Part shown: positions 820 to 17,930 of the stretch, in pieces | Numbering within the stretch: position 1 is the first letter of the stretch | How the letters are laid out: the number at the start of each line of letters is the position of its first letter | DNA from: Circinella umbellata | Taxonomy: Eukaryota > Mucoromycota > Mucoromycetes > Mucorales > Lichtheimiaceae | Reading direction: 5' to 3' | DNA length: 64,000 bases | NCBI GenBank assembly: GCA_025093555.1 | Contig: JAIWNF010000090.1 | Location: 1 to 64,000 of the forward strand | Notes under the pieces: model-generated | The model's database searches: none | What the model was told of the DNA's origin: nothing | What the model saw: only the letters and a program-made list of their open reading frames with translations | Position numbers and translations under genes: made by a program

Positions 820-1126
820 GTTAATTTAACTTCTAAATAATTAGAAGATATAATATTTTTTGATTTTTGTTATGTTGTATTTGTTGTAATATTTTTGGCG
901 GATCAATACTGTCGTATTTTTTATTGATAAAACCACGGAGAGATAATCACAAAGAGAGAATATAAATATGATAGATAATATAAACACGAAGAATAATATA
1001 ACCACACAGGTAGATATAACCACACAGGAAAATACCACAAAGATAGAGAATAGAATATAGGGTAGATAAAAGATATCCTTTTTTATTTAATAAAATAATC
1101 CACTATTTATATATTTTCTAAAACTA

Positions 1127-1270
1127 CTGCGGATGCATACAATAATGATAATAATAATAATAATGTCACTGCGGATGATAATGATGAGTAATAAATAATA
1201 ATAATAATAATGTTACTGCGGATGATAATGATGAGTGATAAATAATAATAATATTACTGCGGATGATAGT
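1127..1270. repeat. Imperfect tandem repeat (ACTGCGGATG plus ATA run)
   Basis: ACTGCGGATG recurs at 1127, 1168, 1215 and 1256, each followed by a GATAATGATGAG-like stretch and an (ATA)n run, giving periods of about 41-47 bases. It lies in otherwise unannotated AT-rich DNA. Confidence 0.75.
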
Positions 1271-4200
1271 GCTAAACAATAACAGAGAAATAAAAGAGAG
1301 CCGCAGTAAAAGAAGTATATTCGGTATTAAAATTAACCGATTAATAATTACGACAATACCATAGCCAATAGAAATAGAATAGAACAAAAGATAATTATTA
1401 AAGAATAAATTATAAGTTGAAAGATAATGTTTTTATTATATGAAATGTAAAGGGTATTTATATATTTTCTAAACTATTAATAAGATATGATAAACTAATA
1501 ATGATAATATACGTGTTCATGACTGAGGGTTGACTACGTGTTCGAATGATTGTTATGATGATGTAACAGTGATATGGATTAACTACGTGGCAATATAAAA
1601 ATAAAATACGTTTACAAAAGAAGTATCACAAATGGATAAAAAAGGAAAAGTAGAGTTACTGCTATTTATGGCTACGACAAGTATGTCATATTATGTCATG
1701 TCGTAATTATTATTAATCGGTTATTCTTAATACTGATTATAACAACTCTTTTACTACGGCTCTCTTTTTAGTCTTTATCATAACCACAGTAATATCATTA
1801 TTATTATTAGCTATTATTATTAAAACCCAAAGTCTCCTGAGGTCACCAAATAAGTTCTTTTTTTTATTTTTGTTATCATATTTCTCATTATTCCTTATAA
1901 ATCATCTAATTCAAACAGTCATTTATATAATATTTCCATCCTCTTATCCTTATAGCAGTTGCCAAACAATCGTCTTCTAATGTTTAACGAAAAAAGAGAT
2001 AAATTAACGCATTGCTAGTAATATAATTGACCATTAATCAATAGTTACAAAGAAAATCTAATAGCAGAAGCATGGATACTATCAGAAATAATAACAGTAA
2101 TAACTATTGTTATTATCATCATACGTGATCAATAAATAGTGAATTCCATAAATTTATCAACAAAATAATGTATATATTTCGTATGTTCTGGTAAAGCCAT
2201 ATTGAAAGTGATCTAAGGGAGCAATATATACTGTATTTCGCTATGTTAAAGTAAAAAAAAAGTAACATGATTTCATTAATCAAATAGTGCGATGTCATAC
2301 GGTATAAAAGAATACTGGGTGTTATGTAGAGATAAATAGTATTTCAGTGATGAACAAGAGTAAAATAGATTTGTGAACATCAAATGCATAATCGGATAGA
2401 TAAAGATGTGTTCGTCATTATAAAAGTTGTAAGATTGTGATAACGTGTCATAACAAAAAAAAGGTTTGAGATTATTAAATTATCTGGTATTTGATTGCTT
2501 GTGTATATAATTATATGTGTTAATGATTAGTAGATGTAAGAATAAATATTGAAATCTAGAAGGAACTAAGGGGTGGAGTATATAGGCTGATGTAGGAAGG
2601 TGAAAATAGAAAAGAGAAAAGAAACGTAAATAATGATAACAGAAAAAAAATCAACCAGGAAATAAAAAAGAATAAGCTTAGCTTATCATTGGTGTAGGTT
2701 TGTAATATGAAAATGAAGTGATATTAAAGCGTGATAAAAATAAAAGTGCTGTTATTACAACTAATTCCTTTGATGACCCATATAAACACATTACAAATAA
2801 TTATTTCATAATAATAACACCATTATCTAAGGGAAAAAAATACGCATAAAAAAATAACTATATCCACATAATACTTTATTGATAATATTGCATAAACAAC
2901 TCCTACATCAATAATAATAACTCGTGTATTATCCAATATCTATAACAATTATTTGTTTTACCATCGTTGACAAAATCAAGTCATAAGTTCTATATACTCA
3001 AATATAAAAAATATTATACAACAGCATAATAGCAACTTGGAAGATGCATAATATATATATAAAAAAGAGATAATACTTATCAATTATCATTATTGTATAT
3101 GATAAAAACTTGAATTCATTGATTGTGTTAGAGATAATAATATCTGCCAAGTGACGCAAGGTGTATTGGTAATAAAAATCAATAGCTAACAGTTCCTGTG
3201 AACGTATGATTATTCAGGTATGAAAAAGGTTATTTCCATCAACAAGTTGAGGATAAATAGTCATGTACATGCCAGAATTGGAACAGTAGTATAGTTTAAT
3301 TGACACTGACGATGGCACCTGCGAGCCAAGGAGGACTATTGAGGAAAATCCAATGACAGTGAACCTTGATCAAAAACAAAGGCCAGCAGTAGACTCATTA
3401 CAGTTTTGAAAAGATCGTGAGGAAGCTGCTGATGGAATTAAAGATGGTAATTGACCATGCCAGCGAGTTCAGTATCAAGTGAGTTCTGTTTCTCTTGAGC
3501 GGCCTAATTCATACCAACTCAACTAAACACATTGGAGTCGAATGCTTTGAAGGAATTTGTCCTGATTGATTCATAAATGGGATTAAAAGCTCATTGTCGT
3601 GGTGAATCTAACAATGTTGAAAGAAGAGCTGAAACAAGAAAAGATAAATAATAATAAGTAATTTAATTGATTTGCATATAGTTGAATGGAACTTGGGAGA
3701 GCAGATCATTGTACAAAAGCCAAAAAAAAAGTTTCTCACTTTTAGTTTACCCCGACATATATATATACATGCGCACATATATATAGTAAGTACCTTCCTT
3801 TTTTTTTCTTTTCTTCCTTCCCTATTTATTTTTTTATACACAGGATCCCCTTTTTCTTCCGCACTCTCTATTTCCTTTTGCTGTCTACTTCTTTAACTTT
3901 CCTTTTTCCTTTCCTCACTTTACTTTCCTTTATCACTTTTATCAATGGTTTTCATTACTAGTAATTTTTCTTATAATAAAACTTATACTCATATATTATT
4001 TCCTGCAAAATATTGCTTACTTTATATGCTATACCTTGATGAATGCGGACTTTTATTAATATTATTGGCTAACTATAGGAGTAAAGTAAAGCACTGTAAA
4101 AGTCTCTTTAGTCTCCTACAAAAAAAAAAGTAAAGCACTGCTTTGACGATCAATATAAAATAAACTATTATGTTCCTTCATATTCATTAACTTGCCATTA

Positions 4201-8644: not shown

Positions 8645-9182
8645 CTACTTCTGATCCCATTTTCTCGATCATAGTCACTGAGAAAATTCTTAACAAGAGT
8701 ATCACGAGCTGGTAGATTTGTGTTACCAAGTACAGCAGCCTGGATAGTTTGCAATGCTCCAATGGCCTTGGCATACCCCACTAAAGATTCTTTCCCTAAT
8801 CGCTTAGCACTGCCATCTGGTAGTTTACGTCTTTTATTTTTAATTATTGCTGGTTCTTGACTCTTCTTTCAAAAAAGCAACAAGTTTTGCTTCACTGACC
8901 ATGTTTATATCTTCAAACTCTTGTTTGGCACACCACACCTATATAATTATATCATACAAAAAAAATATCATAGAAAAATGCATAAATTATCATGTAGTAA
9001 ATTATTTGATATTATAAAAATGGTTATTGAAAACTATAACAAACCTCCCAGTGGGCTTGACGCAATTTATACATTCTTTTGGTATTTGAAGATAAGTTTT
9101 CAAGGTGCTTCTCCATAGCCTCCTTGACTTCTTTTTCAAGATATGATTGATCGCACTTGTTGATGGTTGAAGATGAAGACAT
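8645..9182 (-). pseudogene. Crypton-type tyrosine recombinase, N-terminal fragment
   Basis: Exon 1 starts with ATG at 9182 (MSSSS...), reads through SSNTKRMYKLRQAHWE and ends at 9045 before a GTTTGT donor. The acceptor ATATAG precedes exon 2 at 8938, which continues VWCAKQEFEDINMVSEAKLVAFLKE. This is the usual layout of the N-terminal core-binding domain of Crypton/Ndc10-like recombinases. A one-base frame change then occurs near AAAGAAGAGTCA. After it the frame reads SQEPAII... to GYAKAIGALQTIQAA and LVKNFLSDYDRENG, and it ends at the GGATG foldback at about 8640. The frameshift plus the missing catalytic middle make this a pseudogene. It is on the same strand and in the right order to be the 5' part of the 5489-6699 fragment. 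Confidence 0.6.
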
Positions 9183-9239
9183 AATAAATTCAATTGAAGT
9201 AAATAAATAATATAAGAGAAAAGGCAAAAAAGAACTTTT

Positions 9240-10676
9240 TATTTTAATAGTTCTTTATATACAGAAGATTCCTATTAATTTCATAGGTGTCATATGGCAC
9301 ACGTGAATCCTTCATCTCAGATAATTAAAATATAAATTATAGGTAAAAACCACTAAAATAATCCTACATCAGTTGCTTTCTAAATACACAAATAATAATT
9401 CTACCACAATAACACTTTTTATACAATATACAAGAGTAATAATATAACATAATTTATTTATTAATAATCACATACTGTAGTACACAATTTAACATAATAT
9501 AACATCATCTACAAATACAGGAAAATATTTATATATAAAACTTACTTGTAATAGAAATAATGATCTTAATATTACTTTCATATAATAAAACACCTAAAAG
9601 ATTCTCACAAAATTTATTCTGTTATCATTTTTATACTTATCTTGTTTTCCTATTAAATTCATATCCATAACTACCACAATAGGTCCATTCTCCATTTTTT
9701 TGGTGAAAATAAGGGGCTATAAAAATTAACGGGTACTATGGATTTTTTTCATATATTGAATACTTCAGCTCACTACTGTATATCTTTTTTTTAATGTATT
9801 AAAATACGTATAAATTAATGAACTATTTCTACGTATGTGCTTGTTCTTAATGCATTTTTGTTACTATTTCTTTTTCTTATTTGACCATGTCTATATGTAA
9901 CTTTTTTTTAAAAAAAGCTATATATAGATCCAAGAGCTACAAAGATCATTTCTTATATAACACCATTTTTTAATTTTTTTTACATCTTTACTGTTATATA
10001 GAGAGTCCCTGTTAGTTTCAGAGAGACATTTTTTTCATTTTTTTCTGTGAAAATAAAGGGCTGTGAAAATTGATGGATACTATTTCAAAAAATGTGCATA
10101 TATTGAATACTTCAAGTCACTATTATCTTTTAAAATATCTAAATATTAATTAATGAATTAAATCTGTGCACTTGTTCTCTATGCGTTTTTGAAACACTCA
10201 ATTTTTTTATTTGAGCACATCCTTAACTATTTTTTTTTCATCAAAAGAGGAACTGATCTATCTAGTCCCAAGAGCTACAAGCATATTTATTTTCTTTTCA
10301 TCTCTAATGGCTATTATATATATTCTACTCTATATATATTAAAATGACATCAACCAAATCATACCTTAGCTTCTTGACAGCTGAGCAGTATGGTATGCTG
10401 GATGAGAAGATAGAAAAGACGTCACTTCTGAACCATAACAAATTGATCACTGGCAACAAAATAAAAATAAATGAGTTCAAGCTGTTTAAGACATGTAACA
10501 TTATTATGATATCCAAAGGGTTAACGTGAGAAAAATAACAATCAAATAAATATTGTATAGATTCCTACGTTTGAAAAAACATGTAACAGAGATAACAGAA
10601 AAAAATCAGTTCATTCTTTATAATAATCTAATTGTGATCCTTATACTTATCATATAAATAGTTTCTTTTAATTCTA
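9240..10676. repeat. Degenerate ~300-bp tandem repeat in AT-rich DNA
   Basis: The stretch around 9655-9953 and that around 10005-10290 are diverged copies in the same orientation. Anchors are GTGAAAATAAGGGGCTATAA at 9703 versus GTGAAAATAAAGGGCTGTGA at 10046, CATATATTGAATACTTCA in both, and CCAAGAGCTACAA near 9930 and 10267. No gene is visible. Short frames at 10325-10529 are AT-driven and rejected. Confidence 0.6.
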
Positions 10677-12616: not shown

Positions 12617-12831
12617 AAAGCAAATTTCAAATTAGAATAATGAGTATCAAAAAAAAGGTAAGAGGACTAATTGGACTAGTCCTATACAGGTCGAAATCAT
12701 TAGATTTCTAATTATTGGCACCTTTTTTTAGATAAAAAATAAGCATTTCAATAAAGTATATTGAAAATGAAAATCCTAAATACTAAAATTCTTGTATGTA
12801 AACAATCTATAGTTATTTCTATCATAACATT

Positions 12832-13135
12832 ATGAACCAAGTCATGGAAAATTATTTTGATGATGAAATTCTATGCAAAACAAAAGAAAAAAAAACAAAG
12901 ACTCATGAAAAATATAGTTAAAGAAAAAATAAAAGAAATGAAAACAAAAACTTTTCAGTATGAGAATAGTAGCAGTAATATATGTACATATATGCATAAA
13001 AGAGGACAGAAACAAGGACATATGTGTCATAAAAAAATAAGAACAAATATAGGTGATAATAAGCCAGATTTTCTATGTTCTCAACATAGCAAGCTCAATA
13101 TACCTAAAAAAAGTGAGAAAAGGAAAATCCTATAA
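12832..13135 (+). pseudogene. Small Cys/His-motif protein gene, copy 1
   Basis: The frame begins around ATGAACCAAGTCATGG (12832) with VMENYFDDEILCKTKEKK. It shifts at a nine-base A run, then continues MKNIVKEKIKEMKT and a Cys/His region: CTYMHKRGQKQGHMC, then CSQHSK, giving C-x13-C-x16-C-x2-H. It ends at 13135. Motifs of the type C-x-Y-x(2)-KRG-x-K-x-G-x(2)-C followed by C-x2-H are known to me from proteins of nucleocytoplasmic large DNA viruses; that link is from memory and not tested. Copy 2 (14214-14447 plus 15250-15345) agrees closely through the basic N-terminal part and the Cys/His part, which argues that the reading frame was once functional. Confidence 0.5.
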
Positions 13136-13329
13136 GTTTTGAAATAAAGAGAAAAGGTATTAAAATAGAAAAGTAAAAAAAGTTTATATATGTAGTAGAG
13201 GGATACTTAATATTACTGATGTTATTAATAAGCTAACAAAATAAAGTATACTGACTTTATATATTATATATCATAAAAAAAGATAACTAATCTTTTTTAA
13301 TATATAGGATATAATATGTCCTTTTTTAT

Positions 13330-14200
13330 ATAAAAGTTTTTCTCTTTCATATAATCATTAATGATATCTCTTGTATTAAAACTATTTTCTTTAACGCAGC
13401 TATTTTCATTACACTATAACCAAGCCATTTCACATAAAATATTAGTTTATTATTATTATCAACCATATGATCTACTATTTTTTTTTACTTGAAATACATT
13501 ATCACTACTATTATTTTTCTATTTATTACGTTTTCTTTTTTTAGGTGCATCAATGGTTATAATCTCATTATTATCTATATTATTTTCTGTATCTTTTTCA
13601 ATATCTTCTATATTTAAATTTAAAATTTGGATTGTAATTCCCATATCTCATTATATTGTTTATTTACTTTTTGTTTATTACTAAAAACTAAATTAATCTT
13701 ATTCATTTTTGTAGGAAGTTCAAATCTATCAGTATACCATGCCATATGATGTGGATGAACTTCTATATTATAACTTTCACAAAAGTTATGAATATTTTTT
13801 AATTAACAGGCAACATAAAACTGAAGATTATAATATTTTTATATCTGACATTTGTAATGCTGCTTTATTATTATTAAATCTATTGAATTTTGATGCCAAT
13901 ATAGAAAACTGGCTTTCAATTTCAGATCTAAATGATCCAAATTCACTATTATAATTTAATTCATTAATTGTTAAGTTTTTATTAACCTCTTTTCTAATTG
14001 GATAAGCAAAATTATTATACAGGTATATCCACAGCAGCAAAAATGTTACTACCTATAAACTTTTTGAAATTCTATTAACTTTTTACTATTTCGGAGATTC
14101 AAACCATGCATACAATTAATTTTTATTTTAGAATTTTTTTTTCTATATAAAATATAATCACACCAAGGTTTAATAAAACAATGGCAATTCTCAACACAGA
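13330..14200 (-). pseudogene. DDE transposase relic with C-terminal chromodomain, copy 1
   Basis: Reading the minus strand from 14200: CHCFIKPWCDYILYRKKNSK, then INCMHGLNLRNSKKLIEFQK and a broken SNIFAAVDIPVYNNFAYPIR, ELNYNSEFGSFRSEIESQF and SKFNRF. The order KP..Y..RK / SK..IN..GL / YP.RK / N..F...RS.IE..F matches the C-terminal half of Harbinger/DDE_Tnp_4-type transposases. Farther on, HPHHMAWYTDRFELPTK precedes a basic, Asn-rich linker (APKKRKRNK). Then comes a chromodomain: IVDHMVDNNNKLIFYVKWLG followed, after a frame change, by a C-terminal helix IINDYM. Several frameshifts, one at an A9 run, and missing N-terminal catalytic residues show it is dead. The transposase-to-chromodomain order suggests one protein, but a second gene is possible. 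Confidence 0.5.
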
Positions 14201-14213
14201 GATTCTTGTATGT

Positions 14214-14447
14214 AAAAAAACTATGGCCCATTCAATTAGTGATATTATGAATGAGGTTATGGAAAAATACTTCGAAGATGAAGTCATATGTAAAACAAAA
14301 GAAAAAAAACAAAAATTGATGGAAACTATTATAAAGGAAAAAATAGAAGAAACAAAAACAATACAATTCTGGTCTATTAATTCTAGTTCTAATGTATATA
14401 CTTATGTTCATAAAAGAAGAAAGAAAGAGGGCCATATGTGTCATTGA
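14214..14447 (+). pseudogene. Small Cys/His-motif protein gene, copy 2, 5' part
   Basis: Reads ISDIMNEVMEKYFEDEVICK, KEKKQKLMETIIKEKIEETK and YTYVHKRRKKEGHMCH, then stops. Relative to copy 1 the first Cys is Tyr (VYTYVHK versus ICTYMHK), so one putative metal ligand is lost. The rest of the motif is displaced to 15250-15345. Confidence 0.5.
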
Positions 14448-15245
14448 AAAATAGAGAGATAAACTCTAATAGTAAATATTTTGTAAACTATGAAATTTTT
14501 ATAATCACAAGATTATTAAAAATTAATATGTTTACTTATAATTATTTAAATATATGATTTTTTTAAAGTGTTTCAGATTTATTTGATGGTCAAAATTAAA
14601 TATTTTAATTTTATCCATCTGAGTTTAAAATAATATACCTCCAAAATTTTTAAAAATTAGAGGTATATTTTTATTAATATAAATATAGAAGATTTAGATA
14701 TTTTTATATCTACATCTTTAATAACAACAACATTAATTAGACCTAACGGTTTTCTTGATAAATAATATCCTTATATACATAAGTTCATTATTATATTAAC
14801 ATTATTTAATTAAAAGATAAAAATAGTAAATATAATATATTTATGATTAATTTTTTACTTTTTAAGATATAATGATACTATTAAATTAGAAATATTAAAT
14901 ATATTATATTTTTATTTCTGAAAAAACAAGATTTATATATAAATATTTGTTTTTTAATATATATAATTAATTAAAATTAGATTAGGTGTTAGTGAAAAAT
15001 AAAAACAAATTGTTTTTCTTTTTCTTTATGTTATAAATTTATGTTTTTATAAATTCCATAAATGTCAAAATATCCAAAATTTTATAAATTTTGATATTTT
15101 TTATTATATTAATATTTCAATGCCAAGAAAATCAAAAATATTTTATATTTTGATTTTAATCTCTTGGCATATAATTATTTAATTTGTATATAAAAATATT
15201 ATAGAATTCTTGAATACTATAAATTTTTGTAATTATTAAATTAAT
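14448..15245. other. Hairpin-rich AT insertion in the Cys/His gene
   Basis: About 800 bases absent from copy 1. Four strong palindromes are visible: 14585-14619 (16-bp stem, two mismatches), 14633-14668 (ATATACCTC stem plus AATTTTT), 15067-15100 (15-bp stem with one bulge, loop TATA) and 15121-15169 (TGCCAAGA / TCTTGGCA outer arms with AAATCAAAA / TTTTGATTT inner arms). A weaker one lies at 14887-14919. I see no coding frame. Two of the hairpins differ in sequence, so they are not one duplicated element. Confidence 0.6.
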
Positions 15246-15249
15246 GTTT

Positions 15250-15345
15250 ATTCTTGATAAGAACAAATACTGGGAATAATAAACCAGATTATTTATGTGC
15301 TCAACATAGTAAGCTTCATATAACAAAAAACAAGAAAAAAACCTA
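15250..15345 (+). pseudogene. Small Cys/His-motif protein gene, copy 2, 3' part
   Basis: Reads IRTNTGNNKPDYLCAQHSKL, nearly identical to IRTNIGDNKPDFLCSQHSKL of copy 1, carrying the final C-x2-H. It is detached from its 5' part by the insertion described at 14448-15245. The following non-coding DNA up to about 15600 also resembles that after copy 1. Confidence 0.55.
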
Positions 15346-15604
15346 AACACGAAATTATAGAAAACATTGATAAAATGGTTTATAAAAGATTAAAAGATAT
15401 AAAAGATATAAAAAAAATTAAAAAAAGAAAAACAAAAGAAATCTACATCTATAGTAGTGGAACACTTAACTTTGCCAATATTGTTAATAAAATCATGAAA
15501 TAATAGGTGCTGATGTTATATATTATACACTGAAAAAAAAGAGAATAGTTAAATTCTCTCAAAATATATTAGGTATAGTATAACATTTTACATTATATAA
15601 CTAA

Positions 15605-15885
15605 ATTAAAGTATGCCAAGATTATTGGTTTCAATATATGTTTTTAACATTGCTTTTTCATTAAAGTTATCAATAGTTAACTATGTATTGTCACTTTCAG
15701 AATAATCTTTCCATTTAACTAAAAAGTAATATATGTTATTTTCAATTTTATAACTAACAATTGCTTCAATGTCATATAATTTATATGCTCTTTCATTTCC
15801 TTTTCCTTTAAGTTTCCTTTTCTTTGATAATTCTTTACTTTTTTTATAATCATCACTTGAATCACTAATGCCTCTCTCAAGTCAA
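15605..15885 (-). pseudogene. Chromodomain relic, copy 2
   Basis: The minus strand reads SDSSDDYKKSKELSKKRK, then YDIEAIVSYKIENNIYYFLV and KWKDYSESDNT, followed by TAG (15681-15683) where chromodomains usually have Trp, then LTIDNFNEKAMLKTYIETNN. The aromatic cage position, VKW core and C-terminal helix make the chromodomain call good. The TAG is a one-base change from TGG. The N-terminal transposase part present in copy 1 is absent. Confidence 0.6.
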
Positions 15886-17930
15886 CTTAGATATCCTTGA
15901 ACTACTAGATCCCATATTAATGATTGAAGATTACTTGATCTTACAGGATCTTTATAACAATAATTCTTTGGCGACACACAAGCTCAAGATAAACTATGAA
16001 AATGTTTTATGTACTGTGATGATCATTCAAAATAGTCTTCAAAAGCATCTGGTAAAATGCTGCGATTTCATTGTGAAAAGCTGGAGAAAGTCACTGTTTA
16101 CTGGAATTCGTCAACAACTATTACAAAATAATAAGTTATGTACTTAATGTGGAGAAAGAAAACATCAATTATAGGAAGTGTATTGACAAAGCAGATTTAG
16201 TTTACATTAGTGAAGAATATTTAATTGGTCAAAAAAGAGCCAACCTGAGAAAGAAGTGGTTTCTAACAACTGAGGTGTAGAGATTTCCCATTCCATTATT
16301 CCATGTTGTATTCTTGAAGAATCAGTGTTATAGTTTTTACTGCTGTTTATTTGTAGTTTTACACCGTCATATTTTAATGACCATTATTTGTCCCTTTATT
16401 AATTAAATAGAATGATCAATGTTTTATTTGGAATCCTTTTTTTACCAGATAAAACCAATGTGTAAGATGTTAGTCTGGAATATAAAATACATACAATTAG
16501 AATATATTCAGGTGTCGAAATAAATTCTAACAGAATTGGTTGAGACACTCAAATAAAAAATATGAAATATGATTTGATTTGCTTTATCTTCTTTTTATTT
16601 AATGTTAGTAAAAAAATAATAAGTATAAAAATGAGTTCTAATGCTATAATATAATAATTGATTTTCTTTTTCACTCGGTTAGCCCTGCAAAATATGGACT
16701 CTAACTCAATTACTCAAAACAAATAATGTATTGCTATGCAACAAAGACTACTTCAATTATAACAGATCATAGCACAATCAAGCGCTCAACCTTCTGCAGA
16801 GCCCCTGTTATCCCCTAATATTAATATCGAGGATGATGAAGAAGAGACCCTGTCATCTCTACACTCAACACTCATTACCAGTGTGACCTTCCTATATACT
16901 CTTGGTCCCGGTCACCTTTTTTGACTAAAGTTCTTTCCTTAGACTGTTCATTGTTCCCAACTATAATGCTCACTGATGATGAGCATCACAAGACCTTATA
17001 TTTTCAGTATCCCATTGTTGTATCCAACACATATTATTCATAAAGATAATTATTTGTCATTCTAATTATTAAAGTATAGCGTATCTTTAATTATGCTTTG
17101 CTGACATTCGTGTATTTCCCTATTTGGACCATGATTTATAAGAGCACAGAAGTCCGTCTTCTATAATGATATAAGGTTACAGCTGCGTAGATATATCATA
17201 TCGTCAACCGCTCAAAGTCTAATCTTAATATCATTAATCTTATATTCATAATTCACACGGCCATGACAGATATAAATCTTACGTATACACATATCAATAT
17301 ATCCCACTGATAATAAGATTCATATAAATAGAGATAATATTTTATTTTAATAAACTTCAGTTCAATTATTGTTCTTTTGGGTCTCGTTGACTTTTTAACG
17401 TCTCCTTTATTTTATTATATTTGATTGATATAACACCCATTCTCAATCATTCATTATGTAACGGACCTCATAACAAATAAAAAATTATGAGAAACTCTTA
17501 TATAATTTCAATACTCCATTCTTAATCCTCCATTATGAATCTTTCTCCCAATTTACCTTCCTCGTATGTGGTAGGGTATCTCCAGACCTTTTCAAAAGGT
17601 GGGATAGTACAAGTAAGCAGGAAGAGCAGAAAGAGGGACAACGTTTCATAACAGAGAATTAAAAACGTATAAGGAAATTATCTTCGCGCACTAGGCGCGC
17701 ACCAGGGGAAAATAATAGAGAAAAAAAAAGAAACTTACTAGTGCAAAAAATTGTTAAACCTCACACGGCACCTAATTATGAACCGCCAAGGTGGATCACT
17801 ATGTAAAAGTGACAGAAAAGTTGTCCCATTACTAAAAACTCATGGACTAAAAAAAATTACGGCGGCACACCTTAAAGAAGTGCATAGGCCAGCCTTTAAA
17901 AGTCCGGCGGGACGGCAGTGGGAACTTGCT
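15886..17930. other. Gene-poor DNA with two coding relics
   Basis: At 15920-16147 a plus-strand frame of 75 codons (contains KCCDFIVKSWRKSLFTGIRQ) ends in a stop and further stop-broken frame follows; probably part of a decayed element. At about 16735-17010 the plus strand reads, with breaks, SAQPSAEPLLSPNINIEDDE and LTDDEHHKTLYFQYPIV, again a relic of an unidentified gene. CCATTCTCAATCATTCATTATG at 17438 is repeated with changes at 17517. Around 17685-17700 is GCGCGCACTAGGCGCGC. No functional gene is supported. Confidence 0.45.

What the first reader, a model, noticed from the sequence alone, without database searches (positions are those of the whole stretch)
12776..15885. Tandem fossil transposon pairing a DDE-chromodomain protein with a convergent Cys/His protein
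Two head-to-tail copies of a ~1.4-kb unit each carry, on opposite strands, a small basic Cys/His protein gene and a transposase-like gene whose C-terminus is a chromodomain (VKWLGY in copy 1, VKWKDY in copy 2). Known two-gene Harbinger-type elements pair a DDE transposase with a Myb-like or other DNA-binding protein. A DDE_Tnp_4-like transposase with a chromodomain plus this Cys/His partner is an arrangement I do not recognise. The chromodomain could steer insertion to modified chromatin, as in chromoviruses; that part is inference.
Basis: partly seen in the sequence, partly recalled or inferred. Interest (0 to 1): 0.75.

Follow-up and report, generated by a model that had tools for sequence, protein, structure and literature searches.

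The report
Chromodomain transposon fossils in a fungus
The window holds two decayed, nested copies of a fungal jumping gene whose cutting enzyme ends in a histone-reader-like domain and which travels with an unfamiliar Cys/His protein; intact copies elsewhere in the same genome show that the odd gene pairing is real.

Summary
The gene pairing is real; the tandem is not. The genome (apparently Circinella umbellata, Mucorales) holds intact 2.3-2.4-kb relatives. In them one 500-aa frame carries both DDE_Tnp_4 and Chromo (Pfam 9.9e-7, 4.1e-10), tail-to-tail with a ~170-aa protein with invariant C-x13-C-x16-C-x2-H. Where a Cys/His gene lies within 300 bp of a transposase, 18 of 19 pairs are convergent; the exception is the window's own junction. 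Of 14 copies with both ends located, 13 have 3-bp target duplications (chance 0.026 each). The model's core aligns with piggyBac and Tn5 transposases, its C-terminus with HP1. In the window, copy 2 (14020 to about 15869) lies inside copy 1's transposase gene (12662-14019), and an 803-bp insert splits copy 2's Cys/His gene. It is Harbinger-like, but without the TNA target rule, a detectable Myb partner or strong terminal repeats. Chromatin targeting is inference; a neighbourhood test was mixed. The second gene varies: some subfamilies have none, and one carries a 734-aa geminivirus/CRESS-like Rep (an older Rep-plus-transposase report exists from truffle). Ten searches of an open-licence library found no description of the chromodomain pairing. 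New variant of a known kind.

The parts
12662..12719 (+). left end of copy 1, GAGGACTAATTGGACTAGTCC..., decayed form of the end seen in intact copies
   Evidence: 86% match to positions 1-58 of the intact left end; read
12767..13235 (+). copy 1 Cys/His gene, broken
   Evidence: protein matches at E 1.1e-31 with stops; hmmsearch 3.5e-35 for its main piece
13336..14019 (-). copy 1 transposase remnant, residues about 270-499, many stops
   Evidence: E 1.7e-55, 22 stops; DNA homology stops at 14019 in six genome matches
13392..13484 (-). copy 1 chromodomain remnant with VKWLGY
   Evidence: hmmsearch 2e-5 to profile positions 443-472; letters
14020..15869 (-). copy 2, inserted in copy 1's transposase gene; starts with (C)AGGTATATCCACAG, right part missing
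   Evidence: nearest relative C1:1578554-1579603, 87-92% identical
14178..14453 (+). copy 2 Cys/His gene, first part
14454..15256 (.). 803-bp AT-rich insert splitting the copy 2 Cys/His gene; flanking duplication ATA (14451-14453 and 15257-15259)
   Evidence: 3-bp overlap of the two flanks on the uninterrupted relative L007; flanks read; repeats elsewhere in both directions
15257..15500 (+). copy 2 Cys/His gene, second part
15618..15881 (-). copy 2 transposase C-terminal remnant
   Evidence: hmmsearch 9.2e-11 for 15684-15881; tblastn E 4e-5 for 15618-15929
15684..15776 (-). copy 2 chromodomain remnant with VKWKDY
   Evidence: Pfam Chromo 6.5e-6, above cut-off

Best explanation
The region is the wreck of two cut-and-paste DNA transposons, one inserted into the other. 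They belong to a Harbinger-like family of mucoralean fungi whose autonomous members encode a DDE_Tnp_4 transposase with a C-terminal chromodomain and, in the subfamilies seen in the window, a small basic Cys/His protein tail-to-tail with it. Shown: the one-frame fusion, the linked convergent partner, element ends shared between copies, 3-bp target duplications, many copies. Inferred: the transposase (D173, D249, E306) cuts out the element and joins it to the target; the Cys/His protein does what the Myb-like protein does in Harbinger, binding element ends and helping the transposase; the chromodomain docks the complex on methylated histone H3 and so favours insertion into silent, repeat-rich DNA, the family's own copies included.
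Against: No function was measured. The family is not closer to reverse-transcriptase or Helitron domains than DDE_3 elements on the same contigs (7 of 47 against 5 of 35 within 10 kb; on all contigs 16 of 81 against 16 of 150), so general targeting to repeats is not shown; the own-kind count is confounded by the choice of contigs, split elements and palindromic contigs. Some relatives lack the chromodomain, some lack the Cys/His gene. The C79 copy has no duplication. The Cys/His model is poor (pLDDT 64) and matches nothing. Foldseek gave no match at E<=0.001 for the transposase.
Confidence: 0.75

Rival explanations
1. Same transposon, but the chromodomain does not choose insertion sites: it is structural or binds something else, and clustering only reflects survival of insertions in gene-poor DNA.
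For: Own-kind clustering is confounded, and closeness to other repeat domains equals that of DDE_3 elements. A supported subclade of database relatives lacks the domain (11 of 11 without PF00385; tree).
Against: The cage-like aromatics are kept across a divergent family, and the model fits histone-bound HP1 closely.
Confidence: 0.4
2. The Cys/His gene is a passenger with another task (regulator, defence against silencing) and is not part of the transposition machinery.
For: One-gene subfamilies exist. The element on C18 has a transposase 99% identical to C79's but a Cys/His protein only 64% identical, so the two genes can part or evolve at very different rates.
Against: Tight convergent linkage, present in both main transposase clades (C79/C130/C18 and C133b/C1), and an invariant ligand-like pattern. 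In Harbinger both genes are needed for transposition in vitro (PMC9179366, introduction).
Confidence: 0.3
3. The two copies are a true tandem duplication of one unit.
For: Constant 1414-1415 bp offset of the first matching blocks.
Against: Copy 1 ends at the same base where a different terminus begins; the two copies have different nearest relatives (C57/C18 and C1/C78) and different left ends.
Confidence: 0.03
4. Chromodomain, DDE region and Cys/His gene come from unrelated elements that happen to lie together.
For: Each remnant in the window is broken and could be read so.
Against: Open one-frame fusions and intact linked pairs on C79, C130 and C18.
Confidence: 0.01

Closest known systems
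PIF/Harbinger DNA transposons
   Same: DDE_Tnp_4 transposase; two-gene layout, tail-to-tail as in Ectocarpus Harbinger (PMC12477816, section 5 read); 3-bp target duplications
   Different: Chromodomain on the transposase; Cys/His protein where Harbinger has a Myb-like one; duplications without the TNA or ANT rule; short, imperfect terminal repeats
ISL2EU and Spy (Harbinger-like groups)
   Same: ISL2EU shows that the second gene can differ within the superfamily; Spy that it can be absent (PMC9179366, introduction)
   Different: No YqaJ exonuclease was found among the second genes here; duplication of 3 bp is present
Chromoviruses and Maverick/Polinton integrases
   Same: Chromodomain at the C-terminus of a DDE integrase, able in retrotransposons to steer insertion to heterochromatin (passages in PMC10799480, and PMC12477314)
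   Different: Here the catalytic domain is DDE_Tnp_4 and the 2.3-kb element has room for two genes only; no reverse transcriptase or polymerase
Geminivirus-like transposon of Tuber melanosporum (PMC3198968, passages)
   Same: Fungal element with Rep-like and transposase frames; a precedent for the Rep-bearing sister subfamily L023-L026
   Different: There the Rep frame is interrupted, the transposase frames are interrupted or truncated, terminal repeats are 37 bp and no duplications were seen; here two copies have both genes open, with 3-bp duplications and a chromodomain

Membership tests
PIF/Harbinger | DDE_Tnp_4 catalytic domain with DDE triad | tested here: met
   Pfam in 25 of 26 alignment members; triad counts
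PIF/Harbinger | 3-bp target duplication | tested here: met
   13 of 14 copies; chance 0.026 each. For L028-L031 the boundary was shifted by 1-3 bases after seeing the flanks
PIF/Harbinger | target of the TNA type (or ANT in the Pangu subgroup) | tested here: not met
   TNA in 2 of 13 duplications, ANT in 2 of 13; the middle base is A or T in 13 of 13, in an AT-rich genome
PIF/Harbinger | terminal inverted repeats of 25-50 bp | tested here: not met
   over the outer 20 bases, 13-14 match in the Cys/His subfamily, 11-12 in L028-L031, 7-8 in L012/L013 and L023-L026
PIF/Harbinger | second frame with Myb/SANT-like domain | tested here: inconclusive
   no Myb family among Pfam hits at E<=0.1 for 20 Cys/His proteins; structure model too poor to judge
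PIF/Harbinger | grouping with Harbinger transposases in a tree | not tested
   no reference Harbinger proteins were in hand; the tree holds this family only
ISL2EU | second frame with YqaJ exonuclease | tested here: not met
   no such Pfam hit in the Cys/His proteins or the two Rep pieces of L023
Chromovirus or Maverick | reverse transcriptase or polymerase with rve-type integrase in the same element | tested here: not met
   elements of 1.8-4.0 kb hold only the transposase, plus Cys/His or Rep
Chromodomain (HP1-type reader) | Pfam Chromo and fold | tested here: met
Chromodomain (HP1-type reader) | binds methylated histone H3 | not testable with these tools
   only the cage-like aromatics can be seen

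The most novel reading that the evidence does not exclude
A lineage of cut-and-paste transposons that reads histone marks through a chromodomain built into its DDE_Tnp_4 transposase, a kind of steering so far described for retrotransposon and Maverick integrases. It exchanges its second gene freely: a Cys/His end-binding protein, nothing, or a geminivirus-type Rep that may copy excised circles, so that a cut-and-paste element also replicates.
Probability: 0.25. Interest if true: 0.8.

Novelty: new variant of a known kind. Interest (0 to 1): 0.6.

Why it matters
Chromodomain-guided insertion is known from retrotransposon integrases. The exchangeable partner (Cys/His, none, or Rep) also offers a natural series for asking what a transposon's second gene does.

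Tried and rejected
Tandem duplication: rejected. Separate genes from different elements: rejected. Viral origin of the pair: no match to the transposase in phage records; neither protein confirmed in viral contigs; absence at that sensitivity only. A named family for the Cys/His protein: no consistent Pfam hit in 20 members (the commonest weak hit in 3 of 20, best E 0.0041), one PDB chain at E 0.95, one Foldseek match at E 7.9. A likeness to zinc-binding motifs of giant viruses came from memory and was not confirmed. A geminivirus-type origin (nonanucleotide) in the Rep element: one loose match to the pattern, not convincing. Helicase part of the Rep: no PDB match for that piece of L023 or for the relative P0099; the helicase label rests on the Walker A motif and recall. 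Foldseek listed mostly chromodomains at the top and nothing at E<=0.001; the DDE core was seen in the second look.

Chromatin test: mixed, see the Against line. Flanks of the 13 duplication-bearing copies: transposable-element domains near 6 of 13 (L013, L023, L028, L029, L031, and L016 below the Pfam cut-off); one to three chosen frames per site, none scanned for L030, no random control, so no weight is put on it. The chromodomain flags in the tree script were a crude pattern that missed domains Pfam finds in L028, L032 and L038; Pfam counts are used instead. The tree is a quick one without bootstrap. Its row CH_C68 was labelled as Cys/His-linked, but that pair runs in one direction, so I do not count it.

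Dropped before the duplication count: L027 (right end missing), the mirror arm of L012, and every copy with only one end located.

Literature: ten searches in a library of openly licensed papers; not every listed paper was opened. The survey by Muszewska and colleagues of 2017 (recalled; its reference seen) is not held, so mention there cannot be excluded. Papers: PMC12477816 section 5 and passages; PMC9179366 introduction and passages; PMC10799480, PMC3198968, PMC12477314, PMC7928374, PMC3145265, PMC10085805 passages only; all others listing only.

Full report
What is in the window. The reported region is transposon wreckage. Ungapped repeat blocks of 70-80% identity lie at spacings of 1414-1415 and 2259 bp. 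Against the whole genome (50.8 Mb, 210 contigs) the stretch has 101 matches, itself and matches to the nested insert included; 40 of 164 candidates were scored, so the count is a lower bound. The genome is apparently Circinella umbellata: a protein record of that species lies on a contig of exactly the length of C79, 817,719 bp; lineage Mucorales, Lichtheimiaceae. The region is 20.6% G+C against 31.4% for the window.

How the copies are arranged. Copy 1 begins at 12662 with an element end seen in intact copies. Six genome matches to it stop at 14019, in the transposase gene near residue 270. At 14020 (give or take a base) a different terminus starts, shared with elements on C1, C68, C156 and C142; from there on the sequence is closest to C1:1578.5-1579.6 kb and C78 (87-92%). 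So copy 2 lies inside copy 1. Copy 2's Cys/His gene is split at 14454-15256 by an 803-bp repeat; on the uninterrupted relative L007 the two flanks overlap by 3 bp, and both read ATA. Copy 2's DNA homology ends at about 15869. The 1.4-kb spacing is thus an accident of where copy 2 landed.

Intact relatives. The transposase search gives 94 matches in the genome (lower bound, 86 of 244 candidates scored). Open 500-aa frames 99-100% identical lie on C79, C95, C130 and C18, and a 396-aa open piece on C133. Those on C79, C130 and C18 have a complete open Cys/His frame beside them. The C79 protein has DDE_Tnp_4 at 9.9e-7 and Chromo at 4.1e-10 in one frame. In 7 of 7 further transposase frames scanned from other subfamilies both domains appear at E<=0.1, one of each below its cut-off. 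In the protein database 33 of 83 relatives carry both precomputed domains; among relatives with a named host these are two of Circinella minor, while named relatives in Mucor hiemalis, M. plumbeus, Lichtheimia corymbifera, Rhizopus microsporus and Dissophora ornata are listed without the chromodomain, some of them short. In the 26-member alignment the triad is D173 (26 of 26), D249 (24 of 25 filled), E306 (25 of 25 filled).

The partner. The Cys/His family has invariant C75, C89, C106 and H109 in 20 aligned members: C-x13-C-x16-C-x2-H. The database holds 15 relatives; the only named one is C. umbellata's own. Merging the genome hits (94 transposase rows; 73 of 96 Cys/His rows after leaving out overlapping ones) gives 81 and 72 places. 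Of the 81, 35 have a Cys/His place within 3 kb: 26 convergent, 5 divergent, 4 in one direction. Within 150 bp it is 13 of 13 convergent, within 300 bp 18 of 19, the exception being the window's copy 1/copy 2 junction. Its structure is uncertain (pLDDT 64), and no family or fold was found. The C18 element has a transposase 99% identical to C79's but a Cys/His protein only 64% identical, which suggests exchange of the partner by recombination.

Ends and duplications. Of 14 copies with both ends located, 13 have identical 3-bp flanks: CTG, TAT, ATA, ATA, CTT, ATG, ATA, TAC, AAT, TTA, TTA, ATT, AAG; random places in the fetched loci match at 3 bp with frequency 0.026. The failure is C79 itself, where another element begins after a 15-bp spacer that also occurs at C133. 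For L028-L031 the boundary was shifted by 1-3 bases once the flanks were seen. The middle base is A or T in 13 of 13. Terminal repeats are weak: over 20 bases 13-14 match in the Cys/His subfamily, 11-12 in L028-L031, 7-8 in L012/L013 and L023-L026.

The second gene varies. L012/L013 (2.0 kb), L028/L029 (1.8 kb) and L030/L031 (2.1 kb) leave no room for a second gene of this size. L023-L026 (4.04 kb, four full copies, 99.4-99.6% identical to L023; duplications ATG, ATA, TAC, AAT) carry a convergent Rep-like gene in place of the Cys/His gene. It is open over 734 aa in L024 and L025 and interrupted in L023 and L026. Its N-terminal part matches a solved Rep (PDB 9pqf, 1.5e-7) and, below the cut-off, Gemini_AL1 (5.2e-4), with H-V-H and Y-x-x-K motifs; the C-terminal part has GPSNVGKT. 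A database relative, P0107, passes the Gemini_AL1 cut-off (2.3e-8). A decayed second pair lies on C68 at 475-480 kb: transposase on +, Rep pieces on -, 60-86% identical. Related proteins exist in Rhizopus stolonifer and C. minor. A Rep-plus-transposase element was reported from Tuber melanosporum (PMC3198968, passages), so this sister type has a precedent.

History. In a quick tree of 75 transposases, elements with a convergent Cys/His gene fall in both main clades (C79, C130, C18 in one; C133b, C1 in the other); one-gene and Rep-linked elements nest among them, and so does a supported group of 11 database relatives without a chromodomain. The simplest reading is that chromodomain and Cys/His partner are old in the family and were lost or replaced in places; other histories are open.

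How it probably works. Shown: fusion, linkage, copy number, duplications, folds. Known for Harbinger (PMC9179366, introduction): the second protein binds the element ends and goes with the transposase into the nucleus. Inferred: the Cys/His protein fills that role, and the chromodomain tethers the complex to methylated H3. For targeting: the window itself is one element inside another, and on the 20 contigs of known length 28 of 47 places have another of their kind more than 4 kb but less than 10 kb away, against 10 of 35 for DDE_3 elements and 4.6% of random points. Against: closeness to reverse-transcriptase or Helitron domains is no greater than for DDE_3 elements there (7 of 47 against 5 of 35), and the contigs were those that hold this family. 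So targeting is open.

Novelty. The domain pair already exists in database records, and one source names a protein by it. No paper describing it was found in ten searches (listed under Tried and rejected), not every hit was opened, and one key survey is not held. PMC10799480 (passages) names Maverick and chromovirus integrases as known carriers of transposon chromodomains. I rate this a new variant of the Harbinger-like kind.

Noticed in passing
L024 728-4763 (C66) and L025 3001-7036 (C146): 4036-bp elements with 3-bp duplications in which an open DDE_Tnp_4-chromodomain transposase faces an open 734-aa geminivirus/CRESS-like Rep gene.
   Followed up: partly
window 14454-15256: AT-rich repeat with internal palindromes, ATA duplication and GAGAGATAAAC / GTTTATTCTTG ends; may be a non-autonomous passenger of a related transposase.
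   Followed up: partly
L030 2694-4806 and L031 2917-5029: Transposase gene flanked by 201-203 bp repeats in direct orientation, by my reading; each starts AGAAAC and ends GTTTCT, so the unit looks like a composite of two small elements around a transposase.
   Followed up: no
L015 5032-5046 and the matching spacer in L014: The same 15-bp spacer (TAAAAAAAGCTTAGA) joins the right end of one element to the left end of the next at two loci, which suggests recombination or movement of a dimer.
   Followed up: no
L011 2897-5333 (C18): Transposase 99% identical to the C79 copy but Cys/His protein only 64%: likely exchange of the second gene.
   Followed up: partly
database proteins P0008, P0010, P0012, P0013, P0015-P0019, P0021, P0023: A supported group of transposases without a chromodomain nested among those with one; P0017 and the Rep-like P0099 share a longest-contig length of 4459 bp, a hint that this group may be Rep-linked.
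   Followed up: partly
L012 (C198) around 821-3512 and 8967-9953: Palindromic contig with long frames that reminded me of RNA-virus genes; three pieces gave no Pfam hit. A copy of the transposon sits beside them. Not pursued.
   Followed up: no
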